Origin: Gammaproteobacteria bacterium
GTDB taxonomy: Bacteria > Pseudomonadota > Gammaproteobacteria > Pseudomonadales > JAUIET01
NCBI GenBank assembly: GCA_030429735.1
Contig: JAUIET010000002.1
Span: 62,001-126,000 of the forward strand
DNA length: 64,000 nt
Direction: 5' to 3'
A model generated the notes under the pieces. That model had not been told where the DNA came from. It was given only the letters and a program-made list of their open reading frames with translations, and ran no database searches. Of this stretch, positions 48,576-57,686 are shown one piece after another; position 1 is the stretch's first letter; each line of letters begins with the position of its first letter. Made by a program: the position numbers and the translations under genes.

Positions 48576-49985
48576 GTGCAACAATTATCCGGGCTTGATG
48601 CTGCATTCATCCATCAGGAAAGTTCAGTAGCGCCTATGCATGTAAGCGCGGTGCTGATTTATGGCCCGGGCACTGCCAAAGGCAAACGCAAGCGCAAAAG
48701 CCTGGATAAAAAAATGCTGGCCCGGGTATTGCTGGGAGCGTGCGAGCATATCCCTTTTCTGACCCAGAAACTAAAGACGCTGCCAATGGATATGGATGAA
48801 CCCTATTGGATCAGAGATACTAACTTTGACCTTAGCAGCCACCTAGCACAACATTCGTTGCCCTCTCCAGGCAATTGGCAGCAACTCACACAACGGCTTG
48901 CCGACATACATGCCAGGCGGCTTGATAGATCCAAACCATTATGGCGTGCCGAACTGATTACTGGTTTGGATGATTGTTCTGATTTCCCTGCAGGCAGTGT
49001 CGCCGTGATGCTGAAAGTACATCATGCGTGTATTGATGGTGTTTCACTGGCGGCAATGGTGTCGACAATGCACAGCAATGACCTTGGCGGCAGCGATAAC
49101 CGTCCTGCCAAGGCGCAAATCAGTGATTATGAGTTGTGGAATAGAGCAAGCATCAAAACCTGGACCAGGCCCTTAAAGTTTGCCAGTACCTTATCGAGTT
49201 TGCTGCCGAAAGTGTTGCAGAGACCTGACGACGAGGCGGTGTATGAGGGAAGCGACACCAGCCACAGACAAACCATTCTCAATGCGCGAGTAACACGTAC
49301 CCGCACCCTGGGGTCTGTGTTACTACCGCTGCCTGAGCTTGAAGACATAAAGCGACGAGTACGGCGGGTAACGTACAACGACATCGCCTTGGCGATTGTC
49401 AGCGGTGCGCTTCGGTCTTACTTGCTGAACCGCGGCGAGCTGCCGAACAAATCTCTGATTGCCGGCGCACCGATGAGCCTCAGGAAGCGCCAGGACACCA
49501 GCCACGGCAACAAGCTGGCAACGCTGCAGGTTGGTCTTGCCACTGATATTCATGACCCTGTGGAACGTTTGAGAGCGATACACCAGTACGCAGTGCACGC
49601 CAAGAAGAAACTGAACACGATGGGCAGCGGCACCATCATGGATATCAGCGACAGTGTTGCTCCAGGTGCGCTGGCAGAGGGTTTACGTGCTCTTAGTTTT
49701 GCCTCCACGGCATTGACCGATATACCGGTACCGTTCCATGTGATGGTATCGAACGTTCCAGGTCCACGGCAGGCAATGGATCTTGCCAGTTGCCCTTTAC
49801 ACTCGCTGCTGGGTTTTGGGCCGATACGCCATACGATGGGTTTGTTCCATATTGTGACCCAGGCGGAGCAAAGACAAAGCATCAGCTTTGTCAGTTGCAA
49901 CACGATTATTCCAGATCCTGAGCACTATGAGGAATGCTTGCAAAACAGCTTTCTCGAGCTGTATCGCGCCAGTGAGTCTTGCTGA
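48576..49985 (+). CDS. Wax ester synthase/diacylglycerol acyltransferase 1
   Basis: 469 residues from GTG 48576 (MQQLSGLDAAFIHQES), with GGGAGCGAGG upstream. The catalytic motif HHxxxDG is H149-H150-x3-D154-G155. The C-terminal marker blocks are NVPGPRQAMD and the PLHSLLGFGPI segment. It joins a fatty alcohol or diacylglycerol to acyl-CoA, making storage wax esters or triacylglycerol at the inner membrane. Length and motifs are normal for the bacterial family. A second, longer paralogue follows at 50370. Confidence 0.94.
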   Translation: MQQLSGLDAAFIHQESSVAPMHVSAVLIYGPGTAKGKRKRKSLDKKMLARVLLGACEHIPFLTQKLKTLPMDMDEPYWIRDTNFDLSSHLAQHSLPSPGNWQQLTQRLADIHARRLDRSKPLWRAELITGLDDCSDFPAGSVAVMLKVHHACIDGVSLAAMVSTMHSNDLGGSDNRPAKAQISDYELWNRASIKTWTRPLKFASTLSSLLPKVLQRPDDEAVYEGSDTSHRQTILNARVTRTRTLGSVLLPLPELEDIKRRVRRVTYNDIALAIVSGALRSYLLNRGELPNKSLIAGAPMSLRKRQDTSHGNKLATLQVGLATDIHDPVERLRAIHQYAVHAKKKLNTMGSGTIMDISDSVAPGALAEGLRALSFASTALTDIPVPFHVMVSNVPGPRQAMDLASCPLHSLLGFGPIRHTMGLFHIVTQAEQRQSISFVSCNTIIPDPEHYEECLQNSFLELYRASESC

Positions 49986-50018: not shown

Positions 50019-50048
50019 CTGACAGTTTTGGTCATCCAAGACTGCCAG
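50019..50048. repeat. Imperfect hairpin between the first WS/DGAT and the 78-aa ORF
   Basis: CTGACAGTTTTGG (50019-50031) and CCAAGACTGCCAG (50036-50048) pair with two or three mismatches. No T tract follows. It may separate the upstream transcript from the next gene set. Confidence 0.3.
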
Positions 50049-50136
50049 TTACGGCACTACTGAAATAGTCACCATTCGCTAGAATTTGGGTGTCTATTCA
50101 GTAACTCCTTTTAGGGCCGATCGAAAGGTACATCTT

Positions 50137-50373
50137 ATGAAACCAGTTGCGAATAATAATTCTGGCAATGCGAATGTGTGCTTCTCCCTGGGGGCCGCCG
50201 TTGTTGAGGACGATATTGGAGGTACGTCTGGGCAGAGCAAATCGGTTGATCAGGATTATTGGGGCAGTAGCATGAGTTTGCATGCGGTACAGGAAGGCCG
50301 CATATTTGGTGTGTTTGGTGTTGCCCGTAACCCTTCGCTTAACAATAATCGCCTGGCTGGAGCGGTAGTATGA
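50137..50373 (+). CDS. Unknown 78-aa protein, coupled to the second WS/DGAT
   Basis: From ATG 50137, with AAAGG 8 bp upstream, to a TGA that overlaps the next ATG as ATGA. It begins MKPVANNNSGNANVCFS, has one cysteine, is Gly-, Ser- and Asn-rich, and shows no signal peptide or membrane helix. I do not recognise it. The overlapping stop/start and the neighbours are the main support that it is a real gene. Confidence 0.5.
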   Translation: MKPVANNNSGNANVCFSLGAAVVEDDIGGTSGQSKSVDQDYWGSSMSLHAVQEGRIFGVFGVARNPSLNNNRLAGAVV

Positions 50374-51938
50374 AGCAGTTGGGTGTATTGGATAGTGCTT
50401 TTATCAATCTGGAGAGCCCTAATACGCCCCAGCATGTTGGTGGTCTGGGTATCTACGACCCATCCACAGCTCCCGGCGGAACAGTTCGCTTCAAGGAAGT
50501 GATTACAAATTTTGAGCAGCGTTTGAATACGATGCCTTTGTTTAGAACGCGCGTTGTGGATGTGCCGGGTAAAATCGACCGCCCGTACTGGGTGCAGGAC
50601 ACAAACTTCGATGTCGAGTTTCACTTACGCCATGTGGCGCTGCCGGCCCCCGGTGATTGGCGCCAGCTGTGGATCCAGGCGGCGCGTTTGCACGCCAGGC
50701 AATTGGATATGTCACGGCCGTTGTGGGAAGCCTACATCATCGAAGGGCTGGACAATATTCCGGATGTACCCACAGGTGCTTTCGCAATCTACACCAAAAT
50801 GCACCATAGCCTGGTTGATGGGGCAGGCGGTGACGCATTTATGATGGCTCTGCACGACACGATGGCGGTGCCCGCCGGCAAACCGGCAGAGCCCGACGTT
50901 GTGTTTGCAGATCGCCAACCCTCGGGAACAGAGTTACTTGCCCGTTCCGTTGTTAACCGTGGTCGCAACAGCGTCAACCTGGTGCGCGGTGCCGCCAGTA
51001 CTTTAGTAAAAACCGTTAAACACCAAGCCGCGATAGCGCGTGACGAAATCCCTCCGTCTGACCTGAATGCGCCAAAAACCCGGTTTAATAACCCGGTTGG
51101 TCCGCACCGTGTGGTCGATGCTGCAGTGTTTGACCTGAACGACTTCAAAATCATCAAAAACGCATTTGACGCCACCATTAACGACGTGGCATTGGCCGTT
51201 GTTGGCGGTGCCATGCGTCATTACCTGCTGGCGCATGATGAGCTGCCTGACGCCTCACTTGCGGCAGGAATTCCGATGAACATGCGCACACGGCGCGATA
51301 TGACGGACGACAACAATCAGGTTGGTTCAATGTTCTGTGAGATTCACACTAACATTGCCGATCCCGTTGAGCGGCTGCGCGCGGTGCATCAGAGCGCAAT
51401 CGATGCCAAAGCGAGCAATGAAGATAACCCGATGGTTGAAATACTTCGGCTGGCCGGTGTGCTGTCGCCGGCAATTTCGCAGCGCGCCGCGCAGCTCTGG
51501 TCAAAACACCAACTGAGTAAATACGTTCCGGCGAATATCAGCACGGTCATTTCCAACGTGCCTGGCCCGACAATACCGCTGTACAGCGCCGGTGCGCAAA
51601 TGGTGCGTTATCACTCGCTGGGCTTGCTGACCCCCGGTTGCGGTTCGTTTCACCTGGTGTTCAGTTGTCAGGGGCGCATCACGGTCACGTTTTTAGCAGA
51701 TCGTGACATTGTTCCCGACCCAGAGTTTTACCGGGAATGCCTTGAGCGCTCATTTCAGGAATTGCTCAGTGCTGCATCCAGTTCAGCACCACGGCCTGGC
51801 AGGACGGCGAAAAAGGGATTGACCAAGGGTAAAAAGCAAGCTGGTGTGAGGAAAAAAGCACCGCGAAAAGCGACAGCAGGGACTCAAAAGAAGACAAAAA
51901 AAGCGACCACACCACGTAACGCTCAATCGAAAGGATAA
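50370..51938 (+). CDS. Wax ester synthase/diacylglycerol acyltransferase 2 with a lysine-rich tail
   Basis: 522 residues. HHxxxDG is H145-H146-x3-D150-G151. NVPGPTIPLYSAGAQM and the CGSFHLVFSCQGRIT blocks are typical. Unlike its paralogue at 48576 it ends in about 50 residues dominated by Lys, Arg, Ala and Thr (for example KKGLTKGKKQAG, KKAPRKATAG), which could bind acidic lipid or nucleic acid. Its ATG overlaps the 78-aa ORF and the TIR-like gene follows by 4 bp, so the three are probably translated together. Confidence 0.93.
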   Translation: MKQLGVLDSAFINLESPNTPQHVGGLGIYDPSTAPGGTVRFKEVITNFEQRLNTMPLFRTRVVDVPGKIDRPYWVQDTNFDVEFHLRHVALPAPGDWRQLWIQAARLHARQLDMSRPLWEAYIIEGLDNIPDVPTGAFAIYTKMHHSLVDGAGGDAFMMALHDTMAVPAGKPAEPDVVFADRQPSGTELLARSVVNRGRNSVNLVRGAASTLVKTVKHQAAIARDEIPPSDLNAPKTRFNNPVGPHRVVDAAVFDLNDFKIIKNAFDATINDVALAVVGGAMRHYLLAHDELPDASLAAGIPMNMRTRRDMTDDNNQVGSMFCEIHTNIADPVERLRAVHQSAIDAKASNEDNPMVEILRLAGVLSPAISQRAAQLWSKHQLSKYVPANISTVISNVPGPTIPLYSAGAQMVRYHSLGLLTPGCGSFHLVFSCQGRITVTFLADRDIVPDPEFYRECLERSFQELLSAASSSAPRPGRTAKKGLTKGKKQAGVRKKAPRKATAGTQKKTKKATTPRNAQSKG

Positions 51939-51942
51939 GCAA

Positions 51943-52584
51943 GTGACCACACTGAAAGTTAACGCCGACAGGATCAGCCACGCTGTTTGTTGCGAACCCG
52001 GCGGGCCAAGTGTTTCGTCCAGTCAGTACCATCTGCTGAGCTACCCAAATAATTCTGCCGAGCCTGAGACGCTTCCCAACTTATTGTTCACCTGCGACAC
52101 GGAACAGGACTTACCCTATGTGACCGCGTTCTGTGAGCTGTATGCTCAGCATTTTCATTGTACCCTCGTTGAGCCGTTTTGTAGCCAGGACGCTGATCGC
52201 AAAGACTATGTACGGTGGCTAAGCGCTGGGCAAATACAGCCTAACAATACGGTTGTTGTGGCCTTGGTGGGCCCCACTACCTCCACGTGTGCGAATGTTG
52301 ACTGGGATATTGCTACGGCCTTGACAGATGTTGGGCATGGCACTGCCGGGCTGGTGGGTATCATGCTTCCTCACTATTTCGATATGGCCACTGAAGTGCG
52401 CAATTTGCGTATCATTCCTCACAGGCTTTCTGCCAACGCGGCCAGCGGCTACGCCACGCTTTACACCTGGCAGCACGTGATGCGCAGCTTGTTCAATGCG
52501 CAAGTGATGGTGCAAAACGCACTGGAAACCAGCCGCTTGTCGTTCGTTGAACCAGTCAACAGCTTGCCACTAAAGAAATCCTGA
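51943..52584 (+). CDS. TIR-like (MTH538/DUF1863, ThsB-like) domain protein
   Basis: 213 residues from GTG 51943, with AAGGA 7 bp before it. After a 45-residue N-terminal part, the fold reads LLFTCDTEQDLPYVTAF (about 47-63), RKDYVRWLSAGQIQPNNTVVVALVG (86-110), VDWDIATAL (119-127), GLVGIMLP (136-143) and IPHRLSANAASGYATLY (158-174). That order matches the MTH538 TIR-like family, which includes the Thoeris signalling protein ThsB. Position 122 is Asp where relatives usually have Glu. No ThsA, nuclease or other defence gene is adjacent; the gene sits directly after a lipid acyltransferase. Family by recognition of motifs; function open. Confidence 0.68.
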   Translation: MTTLKVNADRISHAVCCEPGGPSVSSSQYHLLSYPNNSAEPETLPNLLFTCDTEQDLPYVTAFCELYAQHFHCTLVEPFCSQDADRKDYVRWLSAGQIQPNNTVVVALVGPTTSTCANVDWDIATALTDVGHGTAGLVGIMLPHYFDMATEVRNLRIIPHRLSANAASGYATLYTWQHVMRSLFNAQVMVQNALETSRLSFVEPVNSLPLKKS

Positions 52585-52632: not shown

Positions 52633-54342
52633 TCACTCCTGGGTGACTGCCTCACGCAGTTGGTTCTTTAACACTTTGCCAGCTGCATTGCGCGGTAGCG
52701 GTTCTTGTCGAATAGACACGATAGCGGGTACTTTAAATGCGGCGAGCTGCTGTTTCGCGAGCGTTCTAACATCGTCTTCACTGAGACGGTGGTCAGCTTT
52801 CGGCACAATTGAAACCGCTACCACTTCGCCAAGCTTATCATCCGCTACGCCATAGGCCGCCACTTCCTGCACTGCCGGGTGCTCGGCCAGAGCGGCCTCA
52901 ATTTCAGCGGGGTAAATATTCTCACCACCACGAATAATCATGTCCTTAGCCCGGTCCGACAAGTACAAATAGCCGTTTTCATCGAAGTAGCCGATGTCTT
53001 CGGTGTCGAACCATCCGTTTCGAAAGCTCTCGGCATTCGCATCCGGCCGGTTCCAGTACTCGCTCACCAACGTGGGAGTTTTAATCCATAAGCGGCCAGC
53101 AACGCCCGGTGCCAGTTCCTCACCTTGGTCGTCGTATACTTTGACTTCCACCGTGGCATGACAAAAGCCGGCACTGCCTGGGTTGTCGATAAACGCTTGG
53201 CCGGTAAAGGCAGTACCTATCGAGTTGGTTTCGGTCATGCCCCAGCCGGTACCGGGGTATAGCCCATCGATTTTTTCGTTCATTAAACCGGCCACGCGCG
53301 TCGGTGTGGCTGAGCCGCCGCCACCAAGACTGCACAGGCTGCTGGTGTCGTAATTATCAAACTCGGGAAATTCCAGAAGTTGCAACAGCATGGACGGGGC
53401 AGCGCTAAGCACGGTCACCCGTTCGCGCTCAATCGTTTGCAGAGCCTGCTCGGCATCCCATTTGTACAACATCACGATCTTACGGCCGGCACGCAATGCG
53501 GTGAGAAATATCGCGTGCAGTCCACTCACGTGAAACAAGGGTACAGCCAGCATCTGCACGGGCTCAAAGCCTTTGTTGAGCATTTTGCCGATCAACTCCG
53601 GGTTGGCCATGGCCGATGCGGCTGCCGTGCAGTCGAAGTTCATGATTGCCTGGCAAATTGCACGATGTGTGGATACGGCACCTTTTGGTGTGCCGGTGGT
53701 TCCTGATGTGTACATAATCATTGCCTTATCGGCATCACTGATGTCCGTCTCTGGCCGTTTGGCGCTGCCTGCGCTGTCGGTTTTGGCAATAAACTCTTCC
53801 AAAGTCAGTCCGCACGAGGGGTTGGGGCGCTGTTCGGCACGGGCAATAATGGCCTGTATACCCGACTCGGACAGGCCATCGGCCATCGCGTCGTAACGCT
53901 GCTGGTCACAAAACACGGATTTGCAGCCGCTGTCGCGCACGGCGAACAATAACTCACGCGCTTTGCCCCAACTGTTGACCGGTACGGCAACCGCACCAAT
54001 TGATGTGATAGCGATAAACGTGCTCAACCATTCCGGGTAATTTCGCATCGCAATGCCAACACGGTCACCCTTGACAATCTTGTGCTGCTCGCCGAGTGCG
54101 GCGGCGAGTGACCATGCCTGCTGCAACAACTGCCTAAAACTCCAGCGTTCATTCTGGTAAACCAGGCATTCCCGGTCGCCGTATTGCTCCGCCTCGTGAA
54201 ACACTGCGAGTAAACTGGTGGGGGTTTGCGCGTACATCGTGTAGTCAACATCGTCGATTGTGCGGCGAACCACCTCGAAAGCCTGGCCTTTTTGGGTCAG
54301 CGAGGCCAGTGCCTGATCGAACGCCTGTTTATTCTTGTCCAT
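52633..54342 (-). CDS. Acyl-CoA synthetase (class I adenylate-forming)
   Basis: 569 residues. P-loop MIMYTSGTTGTPKGAVSTH (about 195-213), the aromatic-glycine pocket segment GWGMTETNSIG, hinge motifs GWFDTEDIGYFDENGYLYLSDRAKDMIIRGGENIYPAEIE and the catalytic lysine in PRNAAGKVLKN. The sequence resembles fatty-acyl and aryl-CoA ligases of the FadD/CaiC group. In this location it probably supplies acyl-CoA for the WS/DGAT and reductase enzymes. It is convergent with the TIR-like gene and divergent from the AraC gene. Confidence 0.9.
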   Translation of the reverse strand: MDKNKQAFDQALASLTQKGQAFEVVRRTIDDVDYTMYAQTPTSLLAVFHEAEQYGDRECLVYQNERWSFRQLLQQAWSLAAALGEQHKIVKGDRVGIAMRNYPEWLSTFIAITSIGAVAVPVNSWGKARELLFAVRDSGCKSVFCDQQRYDAMADGLSESGIQAIIARAEQRPNPSCGLTLEEFIAKTDSAGSAKRPETDISDADKAMIMYTSGTTGTPKGAVSTHRAICQAIMNFDCTAAASAMANPELIGKMLNKGFEPVQMLAVPLFHVSGLHAIFLTALRAGRKIVMLYKWDAEQALQTIERERVTVLSAAPSMLLQLLEFPEFDNYDTSSLCSLGGGGSATPTRVAGLMNEKIDGLYPGTGWGMTETNSIGTAFTGQAFIDNPGSAGFCHATVEVKVYDDQGEELAPGVAGRLWIKTPTLVSEYWNRPDANAESFRNGWFDTEDIGYFDENGYLYLSDRAKDMIIRGGENIYPAEIEAALAEHPAVQEVAAYGVADDKLGEVVAVSIVPKADHRLSEDDVRTLAKQQLAAFKVPAIVSIRQEPLPRNAAGKVLKNQLREAVTQE

Positions 54343-54498
54343 GATGCTCTCCTGAGGGCTGAATTTGTGAACGGGTATGCGTATTATGGGCTCACAGTAA
54401 GCGGAGTTCCGATTGGGAACCAGTGCCTAAAACTGCAGAATTGGTTGACCGATTCTTGCGCGGCAGATCGCAATAAAATAACGATATCGTGGCGTGCT

Positions 54499-55563
54499 AT
54501 GCCCAGATTTATGTCATTCCAGCAACTGCGCAGCAGCCTCGACCTGTTTGGCCTGCCGGAGAGTGTTCTGCGTGATGAAGCCGTTGAGCAAGGCATTGAT
54601 CTGGAATCATTAAGTGCCAACCCACAAGCCTGTATCAGTGCGCAGGACTTCGGCCGCTTGTTTATTGCCGCTGTGCGGCGATCGCAGCGAGAGATCAGCG
54701 CCAATGATGCCGAACTGGATTCTGTGTTGCACCTCAGTGCCTATCGCGTGCTGTTCGTTTACATCATTCACGCAGCCACGTTAAAAGAATGCCTGCAAAG
54801 GGCCGCAACTTACTTTACCCGTTTTGAGTCAGAGCGTCGAAGTTTCAGTATCACCACCGAAGGCGATACTGTGCGTTGGCGCTTCGATCTCGGCGAGATT
54901 GATTCGCAAGCGGTGCCCGCGTCGGCCGACTTCACGATGGATGAGTTGCGTTGGTTGCCAGGCTTGCCCGGGCGCATGTTGGCGATGTACTTGTGGCACA
55001 GGCAAGCCAGTTGGTTAACGGGCAACTTTATTGACCTGATCGGTGTACATTTCGATTGCGCGCCGTATGGGTCCGCCAATGCCTATACCGCGTCGTTTGG
55101 CGCGCCAGTGTACTTCAATGCGGATTGGTGCGGCCTGGAATTCCACGCACGCTATCTGGATGCACCACTGGTGCAAAATGAAAATGGCCTGGACCGCATG
55201 CTGGCCACGTTTCCCGCCGAGTTGATAGAGGTTGATGAGCTTGCCAGCAGCGTCTCAGCGCGTGTTCGAGGCTTGATAGGCACCGATTTCTCAACACCCA
55301 TCCCCAGCCTTGAAGAAGTTGCTGAGCGCTTGTTCACGACACCGCCGACGTTACATAGACGCTTGCGCGATGAGGGCACGTCATTTCAAAAGCTCAAAGA
55401 TTCCTGCCGTCGTGACGCGGCGATAGAATTGCTGCGCGACAACTCGCACACAGGAACATCAGTCGCGGAGATACTGGGTTTCTCGGACCCAAGCACGTTT
55501 TATAGAGCGTTCAAAAAATGGACCGGTCTAACGCCGCAGCAATTCAAAGCCCGCAAGGCCTGA
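54499..55563 (+). CDS. AraC-family regulator
   Basis: 354 residues from ATG 54499 (ATG 54511 is an alternative). The frame is open further upstream only as a shadow of the divergent synthetase gene. N-terminal effector domain (MSFQQLRSSLDLFGLPESVLRDEAVEQGIDLE...), then the double helix-turn-helix (LEEVAERLFTTPPTLHRRLRDEGTSFQKLKDSCRR and SVAEILGFSDPSTFYRAFKKWTGLTPQQF). It lies between the acyl-CoA synthetase and the fatty acyl reductase genes and may control them. GTTCC-GATTG-GGAAC at about 54405 in the divergent gap is a possible operator. Confidence 0.9.
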   Translation: MPRFMSFQQLRSSLDLFGLPESVLRDEAVEQGIDLESLSANPQACISAQDFGRLFIAAVRRSQREISANDAELDSVLHLSAYRVLFVYIIHAATLKECLQRAATYFTRFESERRSFSITTEGDTVRWRFDLGEIDSQAVPASADFTMDELRWLPGLPGRMLAMYLWHRQASWLTGNFIDLIGVHFDCAPYGSANAYTASFGAPVYFNADWCGLEFHARYLDAPLVQNENGLDRMLATFPAELIEVDELASSVSARVRGLIGTDFSTPIPSLEEVAERLFTTPPTLHRRLRDEGTSFQKLKDSCRRDAAIELLRDNSHTGTSVAEILGFSDPSTFYRAFKKWTGLTPQQFKARKA

Positions 55564-55605: not shown

Positions 55606-55697
55606 TCTGGCTGGTTCGAATACACTGTTTGCAGTTGATGGATGGCGTAGTACCAATCCTTACACGATAAAAACTCGATAATTATTTGGAGAAGACT

Positions 55698-57686
55698 ATG
55701 AAATATTTCGTAACAGGTGGCACCGGTTTTATTGGCAAATACCTTGTTGAACGGCTGCTCGAACGCGGCGGTACCGTGTATTGCCTGGTCCGAAAAGAAT
55801 CCAAGCACAAATTTAAAGAGTTGAAAGCCTCATTGGCAGCCAGTGACAAAAAGCTTATCCCTGTGACGGGTGACCTGGCAAAGAAGAACATGGGTTTGCG
55901 CAAAGCCGATCTTGAGATGCTGACCGGCAAGGTGGCACATTTTTATCACCTGGCTGCAATTTACGACCTGCGCGCGTCAGCAGAAAGTCAAATGATTGCC
56001 AATGTGGAGGGAACGCGCAACGCGGTTCATGCGGCAATTGCAATGAAGGCCAAGTGTTTCCAGCATTGCAGCTCGATTGCAGCCGCTGGCAAGTTTGTCG
56101 GCACGTTCCGTGAGGACATGTTTGAAGAGGCCGGTGACCTGGAACATCCATACTTCCTGACCAAGCATCAGTCCGAGGCGATTGTGCGCAAGGAATGCAC
56201 CATACCCTGGCGAGTGTATCGTCCGGCGTCGGTGGTGGGCCACTCAGAAACGGGTGAAATCGATAAGGTAGACGGGCCCTACTACAGTTTTAAAGTCTTG
56301 CAGAAAATGCGCAATATGCTGCCGCCATGGTTTCCGTTGGTTGGCGTCGATTCTGGCAGTTTTAACGTAGTGCCGGTCGACTACGTGGTCAATGCAATGG
56401 ATCATATTGCGCATAAAAAGGGCTATGACGGCAAATGCTTTCATCTGACCAACCCGGACCACTACTCCTCGGGTGAATTGCTTAACATCATAGCCGACGC
56501 GGCACATGCTCCGCGCTTTGCGATCAGACTGGATACAAAAATATTCTCGTTTGTTCCCAATAGCCTGGTGTCGATGCTGACCAAGGTACCGGCGGTTCGC
56601 AAGCTTATCGATTCCACGCTGGAAGGTTTTGGTATGCCATCGGATGCAACCATGTTCTTCAGCTGGAACACGCGATACGACAATCGGGATACCGAAGATG
56701 CGCTGCGTGGCAGCGGTATTGAGGTACCTAAGTTACACAGTTATGCCGCAAAGCTTTGGGACTATTGGGAGCGCAATCTGGATTCTGATTTGTTCATCGA
56801 CAAAACGCTGAAAGGTAACGTGGCTGATAAAGTCATTGTCATTACCGGGGCGGGCAGTGGTATTGGCCTATCCAGTGCCATGCGACTGGGTGAGGCGGGC
56901 GCAAAATTGATTATCTGTGGTCGCACCGTTGAGAAGCTGGAAGACGCCAGGAAAGACATTGAAGCCGTAGGCGGTGAAGTGCACACCTATGCCTGTGATT
57001 TGTCGGATATGAAGTCCTGCGACGAGTTCATGAGCAAGGTACTTAAAGAGCATGGTCGCGTGGACATTCTGGTGAATAATGCAGGCCGCTCTATTCGTCG
57101 TGCAGTGGAAGATTCCTACGACCGCTTCCATGATTTCGAGCGTACTATGCAGATCAATTATTTCGGCGCATTGCGCTGCAGTCTTGCCGTGTTGCCAGGT
57201 ATGAACGAGCGTAAATCAGGCCACATCATCAATATTTCGTCGATGGGCGTTGTTGGGCCACCCGCGAGATTTTCAGCGTACATCGCGTCAAAGTCCGCGT
57301 TGGAAGGCTGGACACGGTGTGCCGAAGCCGAGTTTTGCGACCGCGATATCAGCTTTACCAACATCAACATGCCGCTTGTGAAAACGCCGATGATAGGTCC
57401 TACCAAGGCGTATGAGTACGCGCCCACGCTGACGCCGGAAGAGGCGGCGGATATGGTGGTAGATGCGATTATCAATAAGCCCAGCCGCATCACCACTGGC
57501 ATGGGGCGTGCTTTCCAGGTGCTGAATCTGGTGGCGCCGAAACTGGCGGCAACCACAATGAATATGCCGTTCAGAATGTTTGACGAGAAGAAAGCGTTAG
57601 AAGCGCTGGATACCAGCAAGCCGGTCGCAGAACCGTCTGCGGAGCAGGTAGCGGTCGCAGCGCTGATGAAGGGTGTGCATTACTAG
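55698..57686 (+). CDS. Bifunctional fatty acyl-CoA/ACP reductase (alcohol-forming)
   Basis: 662 residues from ATG 55698 with GGAGAAG upstream. Two reductase domains are fused. The N-terminal extended SDR has GGTGFIG (7-13) and Y152-x3-K156 (YFLTK); the C-terminal classical SDR has TGAGSGIG (383-390), S514/S515 and Y528-x3-K532 (YIASK). This size and order match the Marinobacter enzyme Maqu_2220, which reduces acyl-CoA or acyl-ACP through the aldehyde to the fatty alcohol. The alcohol would be the co-substrate of the WS/DGAT enzymes encoded upstream. Its last four bases CTAG double as stop codons for the convergent MscS gene. Confidence 0.92.
   Translation: MKYFVTGGTGFIGKYLVERLLERGGTVYCLVRKESKHKFKELKASLAASDKKLIPVTGDLAKKNMGLRKADLEMLTGKVAHFYHLAAIYDLRASAESQMIANVEGTRNAVHAAIAMKAKCFQHCSSIAAAGKFVGTFREDMFEEAGDLEHPYFLTKHQSEAIVRKECTIPWRVYRPASVVGHSETGEIDKVDGPYYSFKVLQKMRNMLPPWFPLVGVDSGSFNVVPVDYVVNAMDHIAHKKGYDGKCFHLTNPDHYSSGELLNIIADAAHAPRFAIRLDTKIFSFVPNSLVSMLTKVPAVRKLIDSTLEGFGMPSDATMFFSWNTRYDNRDTEDALRGSGIEVPKLHSYAAKLWDYWERNLDSDLFIDKTLKGNVADKVIVITGAGSGIGLSSAMRLGEAGAKLIICGRTVEKLEDARKDIEAVGGEVHTYACDLSDMKSCDEFMSKVLKEHGRVDILVNNAGRSIRRAVEDSYDRFHDFERTMQINYFGALRCSLAVLPGMNERKSGHIINISSMGVVGPPARFSAYIASKSALEGWTRCAEAEFCDRDISFTNINMPLVKTPMIGPTKAYEYAPTLTPEEAADMVVDAIINKPSRITTGMGRAFQVLNLVAPKLAATTMNMPFRMFDEKKALEALDTSKPVAEPSAEQVAVAALMKGVHY

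What the first reader, a model, noticed from the sequence alone, without database searches (positions are those of the whole stretch)
50137..52584. TIR-like (ThsB-type) gene in a tight unit with a wax ester synthase
The protein at 51943-52584 has the motif order of the MTH538/DUF1863 TIR-like family, known from Thoeris anti-phage signalling. Yet it starts 4 bp after a WS/DGAT acyltransferase gene, which itself overlaps an unknown 78-aa gene. No ThsA, SLOG or nuclease gene is nearby. A TIR-like protein in a storage-lipid operon suggests either a nucleotide signal that controls lipid synthesis or an uncharacterised defence module using a lipid enzyme. Asp instead of Glu at position 122 may mean altered or lost catalysis.
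Basis: partly seen in the sequence, partly recalled or inferred. Interest (0 to 1): 0.72.

Follow-up and report, generated by a model that had tools for sequence, protein, structure and literature searches.

The report
Altered immune-type protein in lipid-storage operon
A protein related to a bacterial anti-virus signalling enzyme, but with its key catalytic residue replaced, is kept directly behind a fat-storage enzyme gene in two related bacteria, which suggests an immune part that was put to a metabolic use.

Summary
The 213-aa ORF (51943-52584) scores above Pfam's cut-off for ThsB_TIR (PF08937) and starts 4 bp behind a WS/DGAT gene. The only clear ortholog (54.5% identity) lies in the one other genome held for the genus and family, in the same place. 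The other 242 genomes searched in the order gave no match at E 0.001. The 78-aa ORF is not conserved. Both orthologs carry Asp where 74 of 74 other aligned TIR rows carry the catalytic Glu. They carry Asn four residues before it, where 56 of 74 carry Trp and 2 of 74 also Asn. Yet this segment is the most constrained part of the protein (74% identity, pN/pS 0.22). So it is not a decaying gene. It is more likely a domesticated ThsB-type TIR protein that lost standard NADase chemistry and serves as a binding partner or sensor in the lipid operon. That role is inferred; no experiment and no good model of the protein itself supports it yet. Thoeris membership fails on the catalytic residue and on the effectors searched for (two families). 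Verdict: new variant of a known kind, restricted to one lineage.

The parts
51943..52584 (+). ThsB_TIR-like protein, 213 aa; Asp122 at the catalytic-Glu column, Asn118 four residues before it
50370..51938 (+). WS/DGAT acyltransferase, 522 aa, with a Lys-rich C-terminal tail
50042..50060 (+). 19-bp element CTGCCAGTTACGGCACTAC, identical but for one position before the orthologous WS/DGAT; possible promoter or operator
50137..50373 (+). 78-aa open frame overlapping the WS/DGAT start; not conserved, probably leader sequence or a lineage-specific ORF
52633..54342 (-). acyl-CoA ligase, convergent neighbour, conserved in place in the ortholog locus
54226..55563 (+). AraC-family regulator; start uncertain (first start as listed)
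55686..57686 (+). fused male-sterility-type reductase/SDR protein, PRK07201-like, conserved in place

Best explanation
The gene is a ThsB-type TIR protein that was taken into a lipid-storage unit in an ancestor of this genus and kept there under selection with its catalytic pocket altered (Glu to Asp at the catalytic column, usual Trp to Asn four residues before it). Most likely it no longer makes cADPR signals at a useful rate and works as a non-catalytic TIR module. It would be made together with the WS/DGAT enzyme (inferred from the 4-bp spacing and an AAAGGA just before the WS/DGAT stop codon) and would either bind a nucleotide such as NAD(P) or an ADP-ribose or CoA derivative, or bind the acyltransferase or lipid granule, and so tune storage-lipid synthesis to the cell's state. 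Shown: family, position, conservation in two diverged species, residue replacements, purifying selection. Inferred: co-transcription, loss of NADase activity, and the link to lipid control.
For: PF08937 above cut-off for both orthologs. Same block and same position behind the orthologous WS/DGAT in both genomes, although synonymous sites of the gene are near saturation (pS 0.81) and the order upstream of the block differs. pN/pS is 0.35 for the gene and 0.22 for residues 101-143, the segment with both replaced residues, at 74% identity. Asp in 2 of 2 focal proteins against Glu in 74 of 74 other unique rows; Asn in 2 of 2 against Trp in 56 of 74. An autoactive ThsB needs this Glu (E85) to form cADPR isomers and to stimulate ThsA (PMC10022894, passages). 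In SARM1 the mutants examined, W638 and E642 among them, lost about 100- to 400-fold in kcat (PMC8266388, passages). The C-terminal IPxRLxxNxxxGYA motif of the subfamily is kept.
Against: Only two genomes carry the arrangement, one of them a metagenome bin, so function by neighbourhood rests on one conserved pair. In the ortholog the gap to the WS/DGAT is 58 bp, not 4. Asn at -4 is not unique: 2 of 74 others with intact Glu have it (L083, L113), and Cys51 occurs in 1 of 73 others, L043, a relative with intact Glu; of these four changes only Glu-to-Asp and Phe48-to-Leu are exclusive in this set. Asp could still act as a catalytic carboxylate. The model of the protein itself is poor (pLDDT 42.6). 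No transcript data.
Confidence: 0.4

Rival explanations
1. Passenger: an old, orphan TIR-like protein with a cellular role unrelated to lipids that happens to be transcribed behind the WS/DGAT. The order persists only because the two species are relatives.
For: Arrangement in only two genomes of one genus; 28 other WS/DGAT loci examined in the order lack it; a relative with intact Glu lies alone in a chromosome between unrelated genes (L043).
Against: Synonymous sites are near saturation and gene order upstream of the block differs between the two genomes, yet this block is kept.
Confidence: 0.3
2. Altered enzyme: Asp122 is a working catalytic residue and the protein makes a different nucleotide product from NAD(P)+ or another dinucleotide, which acts on the lipid enzyme.
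For: The altered pocket is the most conserved segment; a carboxylate is kept at the catalytic column in both; Asn at -4 and Cys at 51 occur singly in a few TIRs with intact Glu.
Against: The usual Trp(-4) and Phe48 are replaced too; no effector of the two families searched reaches its cut-off.
Confidence: 0.17
3. Anti-phage module: a diverged Thoeris-like sensor whose effector is the WS/DGAT or another gene of the genome.
For: Relatives with intact Glu sit on IMG/VR contigs, plasmids and in multi-TIR clusters.
Against: No PADLOC match for the protein or ten neighbours; only weak, below-cut-off matches to STALD (13.8 bits) and ThsA_Macro (15.1 bits) in the own genome, none in the relative; catalytic Glu lost; lipid block with base composition like its neighbours; the WS/DGAT scores as an ordinary member.
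Confidence: 0.1

Closest known systems
ThsB of Thoeris (PF08937; PDB 6lhy, 9b7d ThsB1; 8wcf E. coli ThsB)
   Same: TIR-like core and the VVxLxGxxTxxxxVDWxI segment; a profile of six sequences (the focal pair and four relatives) finds 9b7d, 6lhy and 8wcf at E 3.3e-6 to 6.8e-6
   Different: Asp for catalytic Glu, Asn for the usual Trp(-4), no ThsA of the two kinds searched, lipid operon, N-terminal extension of about 45 residues
WS/DGAT family (TIGR02946, PF03007/PF06974)
   Same: The neighbour is a full member
   Different: No TIR-like gene within 1.5 kb at 28 other best WS/DGAT loci of the order
TIR-like proteins of the same subfamily (L043, L044, L046, L054, and plasmid-borne L128-L131)
   Same: 24-27% identity with the PxRLxxNxxxGYA-type motif
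   Different: All eight keep Glu and W, H or Y at -4; contexts are solitary, an unknown partner gene, SLATT, TPR or other TIR genes

Membership tests
ThsB_TIR (PF08937) | Whole-protein score over Pfam gathering cut-off (21.2 bits) | tested here: met
   23.0 bits, ortholog 24.7; partial match, profile 40-96 and 52-95 of 100
ThsB_TIR (PF08937) | TIR fold of the protein itself | tested here: inconclusive
   Model pLDDT 42.6; relative L054 modelled at 77.7 and best PDB match EcThsB 8wcf, E 6e-4
Catalytic TIR NADase/cyclase | Conserved catalytic Glu (ThsB E85, SARM1 E642) | tested here: not met
   Asp122 in 2 of 2; Glu in 74 of 74 other unique rows
Catalytic TIR NADase/cyclase | NAD+ cleavage or cADPR formation | not testable with these tools
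   needs an assay
Thoeris system | ThsA-type effector gene beside ThsB | tested here: not met
   Ten neighbours without PADLOC match; PF18185 and PF20016 not over cut-off in G000 or G003. Other effector types were not searched genome-wide
Thoeris system | Match to PADLOC ThsB models | tested here: not met
   0 families for the window protein at E 10; the ortholog has only E 0.024, 13 bits
WS/DGAT | TIGR02946 over cut-off and HHxxxDG motif | tested here: met
   418.4 against 309.95 bits; HHSLVDG in the translation, by eye

The most novel reading that the evidence does not exclude
An immune TIR signalling enzyme has been domesticated as a pseudoenzyme (or altered enzyme) that senses a nucleotide and controls storage-lipid synthesis by direct action on the WS/DGAT: a TIR protein working in metabolism, not in defence.
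Probability: 0.25. Interest if true: 0.8.

Novelty: new variant of a known kind. Interest (0 to 1): 0.47.

Why it matters
TIR proteins of bacteria are studied mostly as defence or virulence parts. A selected, active-site-altered ThsB relative fixed in a lipid operon would be a test case for non-immune, possibly non-catalytic use of the TIR fold in bacteria, and a handle on how WS/DGAT enzymes are regulated, on which little is known (both general points are my own knowledge, from no call).

Tried and rejected
Rejected: decay of a defence gene (constraint strongest at the replaced residues); recent horizontal arrival (GC and GC3 like the neighbours); the second PF08937 hit of the genome (18.6 bits) as another TIR gene (it lies in an ORF that by eye is AroQ-like; a third hit has 13.1 bits and was not looked at); the 78-aa ORF as a system part (no counterpart); the 19-bp upstream element as a genome-wide regulon site (with up to 3 mismatches 3 places in G000 and 6 in G003, against 1 and 6 for the reversed control).

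Led nowhere: phage records (one hit at E 0.3); PDB by the single sequence (best E 0.16); structure of the window protein (pLDDT 42.6 with two rows; not searched against libraries). By oversight alignment A4 had relative L054 as its first row, so the second and last structure job modelled L054, not the window protein. Plasmid records: 6 of 72,556 hold a match at E 0.001, 28-35% identity; four of the six were opened.

Limits: the WS/DGAT check covers one best locus per genome, for 30 of the 58 genomes with a match, with about 1.5 kb flanks. The PF08937 check covers the 58 loci handed out, not all matches. The alignment for residue counts was seeded with six rows, four with Glu and two with Asp, and gathered by an iterated search at E 0.01 (80 rows, 76 unique), so very different TIRs are under-represented.

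Full report
What is there. The ORF 51943-52584 (+) codes for 213 aa and starts with GTG 4 bp behind the stop of a 522-aa WS/DGAT gene (50370-51938); by eye a Shine-Dalgarno-like AAAGGA lies just before that stop. The WS/DGAT gene overlaps a 78-aa ORF (50137-50373) by ATGA. Downstream, 48 bp away, an acyl-CoA ligase gene converges on it; then follow an AraC-family regulator and a fused reductase/SDR gene. A second, more distant WS/DGAT gene lies upstream at 48576-49985.

Is it TIR-like? Pfam PF08937 (ThsB_TIR) matches residues 81-143 at E 1.1e-4, 23.0 bits, cut-off 21.2. NCBIfam has no meaningful match (best E 0.13, far below its cut-off); PADLOC and PHROGs have none. This is thin for one sequence: the same model scores 18.6 bits at a place of the same genome that lies in an ORF which by eye is AroQ-like. 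The case becomes firm through relatives. The ortholog passes the cut-off too (24.7 bits), and a profile of the two finds, in other families of the class, four proteins (E 1.6e-17 to 7.7e-8) that have 44 to 74 Pfam bits for PF08937. A profile of the pair and these four finds ThsB1 (9b7d), 6lhy and E. coli ThsB (8wcf) in the PDB at E 3.3e-6 to 6.8e-6. AlphaFold2 gave a poor model of the window protein (pLDDT 42.6); a relative, L054, was modelled at 77.7 and its best PDB match is EcThsB (E 6e-4).

Conservation. The only clear ortholog found is in the single other genome held for the genus and family (G003; contig JAUIHW010000011.1, a Gammaproteobacteria MAG). Of 244 genomes of the order, 2 have a match at E 0.001 (these two). 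In a draw of 369 genomes of the class, the two-row profile finds 6 with a match at E 0.01: the own genome, the four relatives above, and one weak hit with stops inside. In the ortholog locus the block WS/DGAT, TIR-like, acyl-CoA ligase (reverse), AraC, reductase, SDR is kept, while the order upstream differs and, only in the window, a gene that by eye codes for a mechanosensitive channel lies between reductase and SDR. The two TIR-like proteins are 54.5% identical over 211 aa; pN/pS is 0.35, against 0.12 to 0.37 for six neighbours. Synonymous sites are near saturation (pS 0.81), so the ratio overstates dN/dS. The gap between WS/DGAT and TIR-like gene is 58 bp in the relative. The 78-aa ORF has no counterpart; instead a 19-bp element, CTGCCAGTTRCGGCACTAC, is shared upstream. 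It is not frequent elsewhere in the two genomes.

Linkage elsewhere. Of 244 genomes of the order, 58 have a WS/DGAT match at E 1e-60. For 30 of them the best locus with about 1.5 kb flanks was examined: the TIR-like gene and the ligase are present in 2 (own and genus mate) and absent in 28. Of 58 PF08937 loci handed out for order and class, one (the genus mate, L084) has a WS/DGAT gene in its flanks. In a tree of 33 WS/DGATs the two TIR-linked enzymes form one clade (100/99); the second copies of the same two genomes lie in another branch of the same group of six (100/99). So the linked enzyme is one of several paralogs of this lineage.

The active site. In an alignment of 76 unique TIR rows gathered from these loci, the column of the catalytic glutamate is Glu in 74 of 74 others and Asp in the two focal proteins. 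Four columns before it the others have Trp in 56 of 74, His in 5, Tyr in 4, Phe in 1, and eight have other residues, Asn among them in two (L083, L113); the focal pair has Asn. Column 48 is Phe in 71 of the 72 others that have a residue there (Tyr in one) and Leu in the two. Column 51 is Tyr, Phe or His in 72 of 73 others, Cys in one (L043) and Cys in the two. So Asp122 and Leu48 are exclusive to the pair in this set; Asn118 and Cys51 are rare but not exclusive. Eight relatives set beside the pair, four of them plasmid-borne, all have Glu and W, H or Y at -4. An autoactive ThsB needs this Glu (E85) to form cADPR isomers and to stimulate ThsA in vitro (PMC10022894, passages only). In SARM1 the mutants examined, W638 and E642 among them, lost about 100- to 400-fold in kcat (PMC8266388, passages only); W638 and E642 are four residues apart by number, as are our columns. 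The match of E85 to our Asp column follows from the alignment printed, where the chain number is one or two higher than 85; the offset is my inference. The segment 101-143 with both replaced residues is the most conserved of the protein: 74% identity, pN/pS 0.22, against 0.31 for 46-100, 0.29 for 144-213 and 0.64 for the N-terminal extension. The altered pocket is therefore under selection, not drifting.

Defence context. Ten neighbours give no PADLOC match. PF18185 (STALD) and PF20016 (ThsA_Macro) do not reach their cut-offs in either genome; the own genome has weak matches of 13.8 and 15.1 bits. Other effector kinds were not searched genome-wide. Base composition of the gene is like that of its neighbours. 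By contrast, relatives with intact Glu lie beside an unknown partner gene (L044, L050, L052, L054), a SLATT/DUF4231 gene (L046), or in TIR-TIR-TPR-TIR clusters on Acinetobacter plasmids. These look like defence units; ours does not.

Reading. The best account is a ThsB-type TIR protein domesticated in a lipid-storage unit, probably without standard NADase activity, acting as a binding partner or sensor for the acyltransferase. The passenger reading is the main rival, since everything rests on two related genomes. An Asp-based altered enzyme is possible; a defence module is unlikely. In the one open-access library held, no paper holds both 'Thoeris' and 'wax ester' or 'TIR domain', 'diacylglycerol acyltransferase' and 'NADase' together; one holds 'wax ester synthase' and 'TIR domain', a fungus-plant transcriptome by its title, not opened. 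Searches gave long, capped lists and show nothing either way.

Noticed in passing
L044:6345-7405(-), L050:4004-5112(+), L052:1-1175(+), L054:3869-5049(+); perhaps L053:3216-4477: TIR-like gene with intact Glu followed directly by a gene for an unknown 157-232-aa protein (alignment A5; some copies with an N-terminal membrane segment by eye). Copies tested had no Pfam or PADLOC match at E 0.1 (L044, L050, L054) and no PHROG match (L044, L054); a possible two-gene defence unit.
   Followed up: partly
L046:6695-7644(-): TIR-like gene overlapping a SLATT_1/DUF4231 gene, with a large TIR protein nearby.
   Followed up: partly
L129:185-3031(+), L131:687-3531(+): TIR-TIR-TPR-TIR gene clusters on Acinetobacter plasmids, as annotated.
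   Followed up: no
window about 51765-51935; L015-L049: Many WS/DGATs of the order carry long C-terminal tails rich in Lys and Ala, some over 100 residues; a likeness to histone H1 or PhaF tails is recalled, not tested.
   Followed up: no
L043:7286-7891(+): Solitary TIR-like gene with intact Glu, but with Cys at column 51 like the focal pair, between genes that by eye are ExbB/ExbD/TonB-type and CheW-like.
   Followed up: no
window 50042-50060; L003:6181-6199: 19-bp upstream element shared by the two WS/DGAT-TIR units; binding factor unknown, possibly the AraC-family regulator next door.
   Followed up: partly
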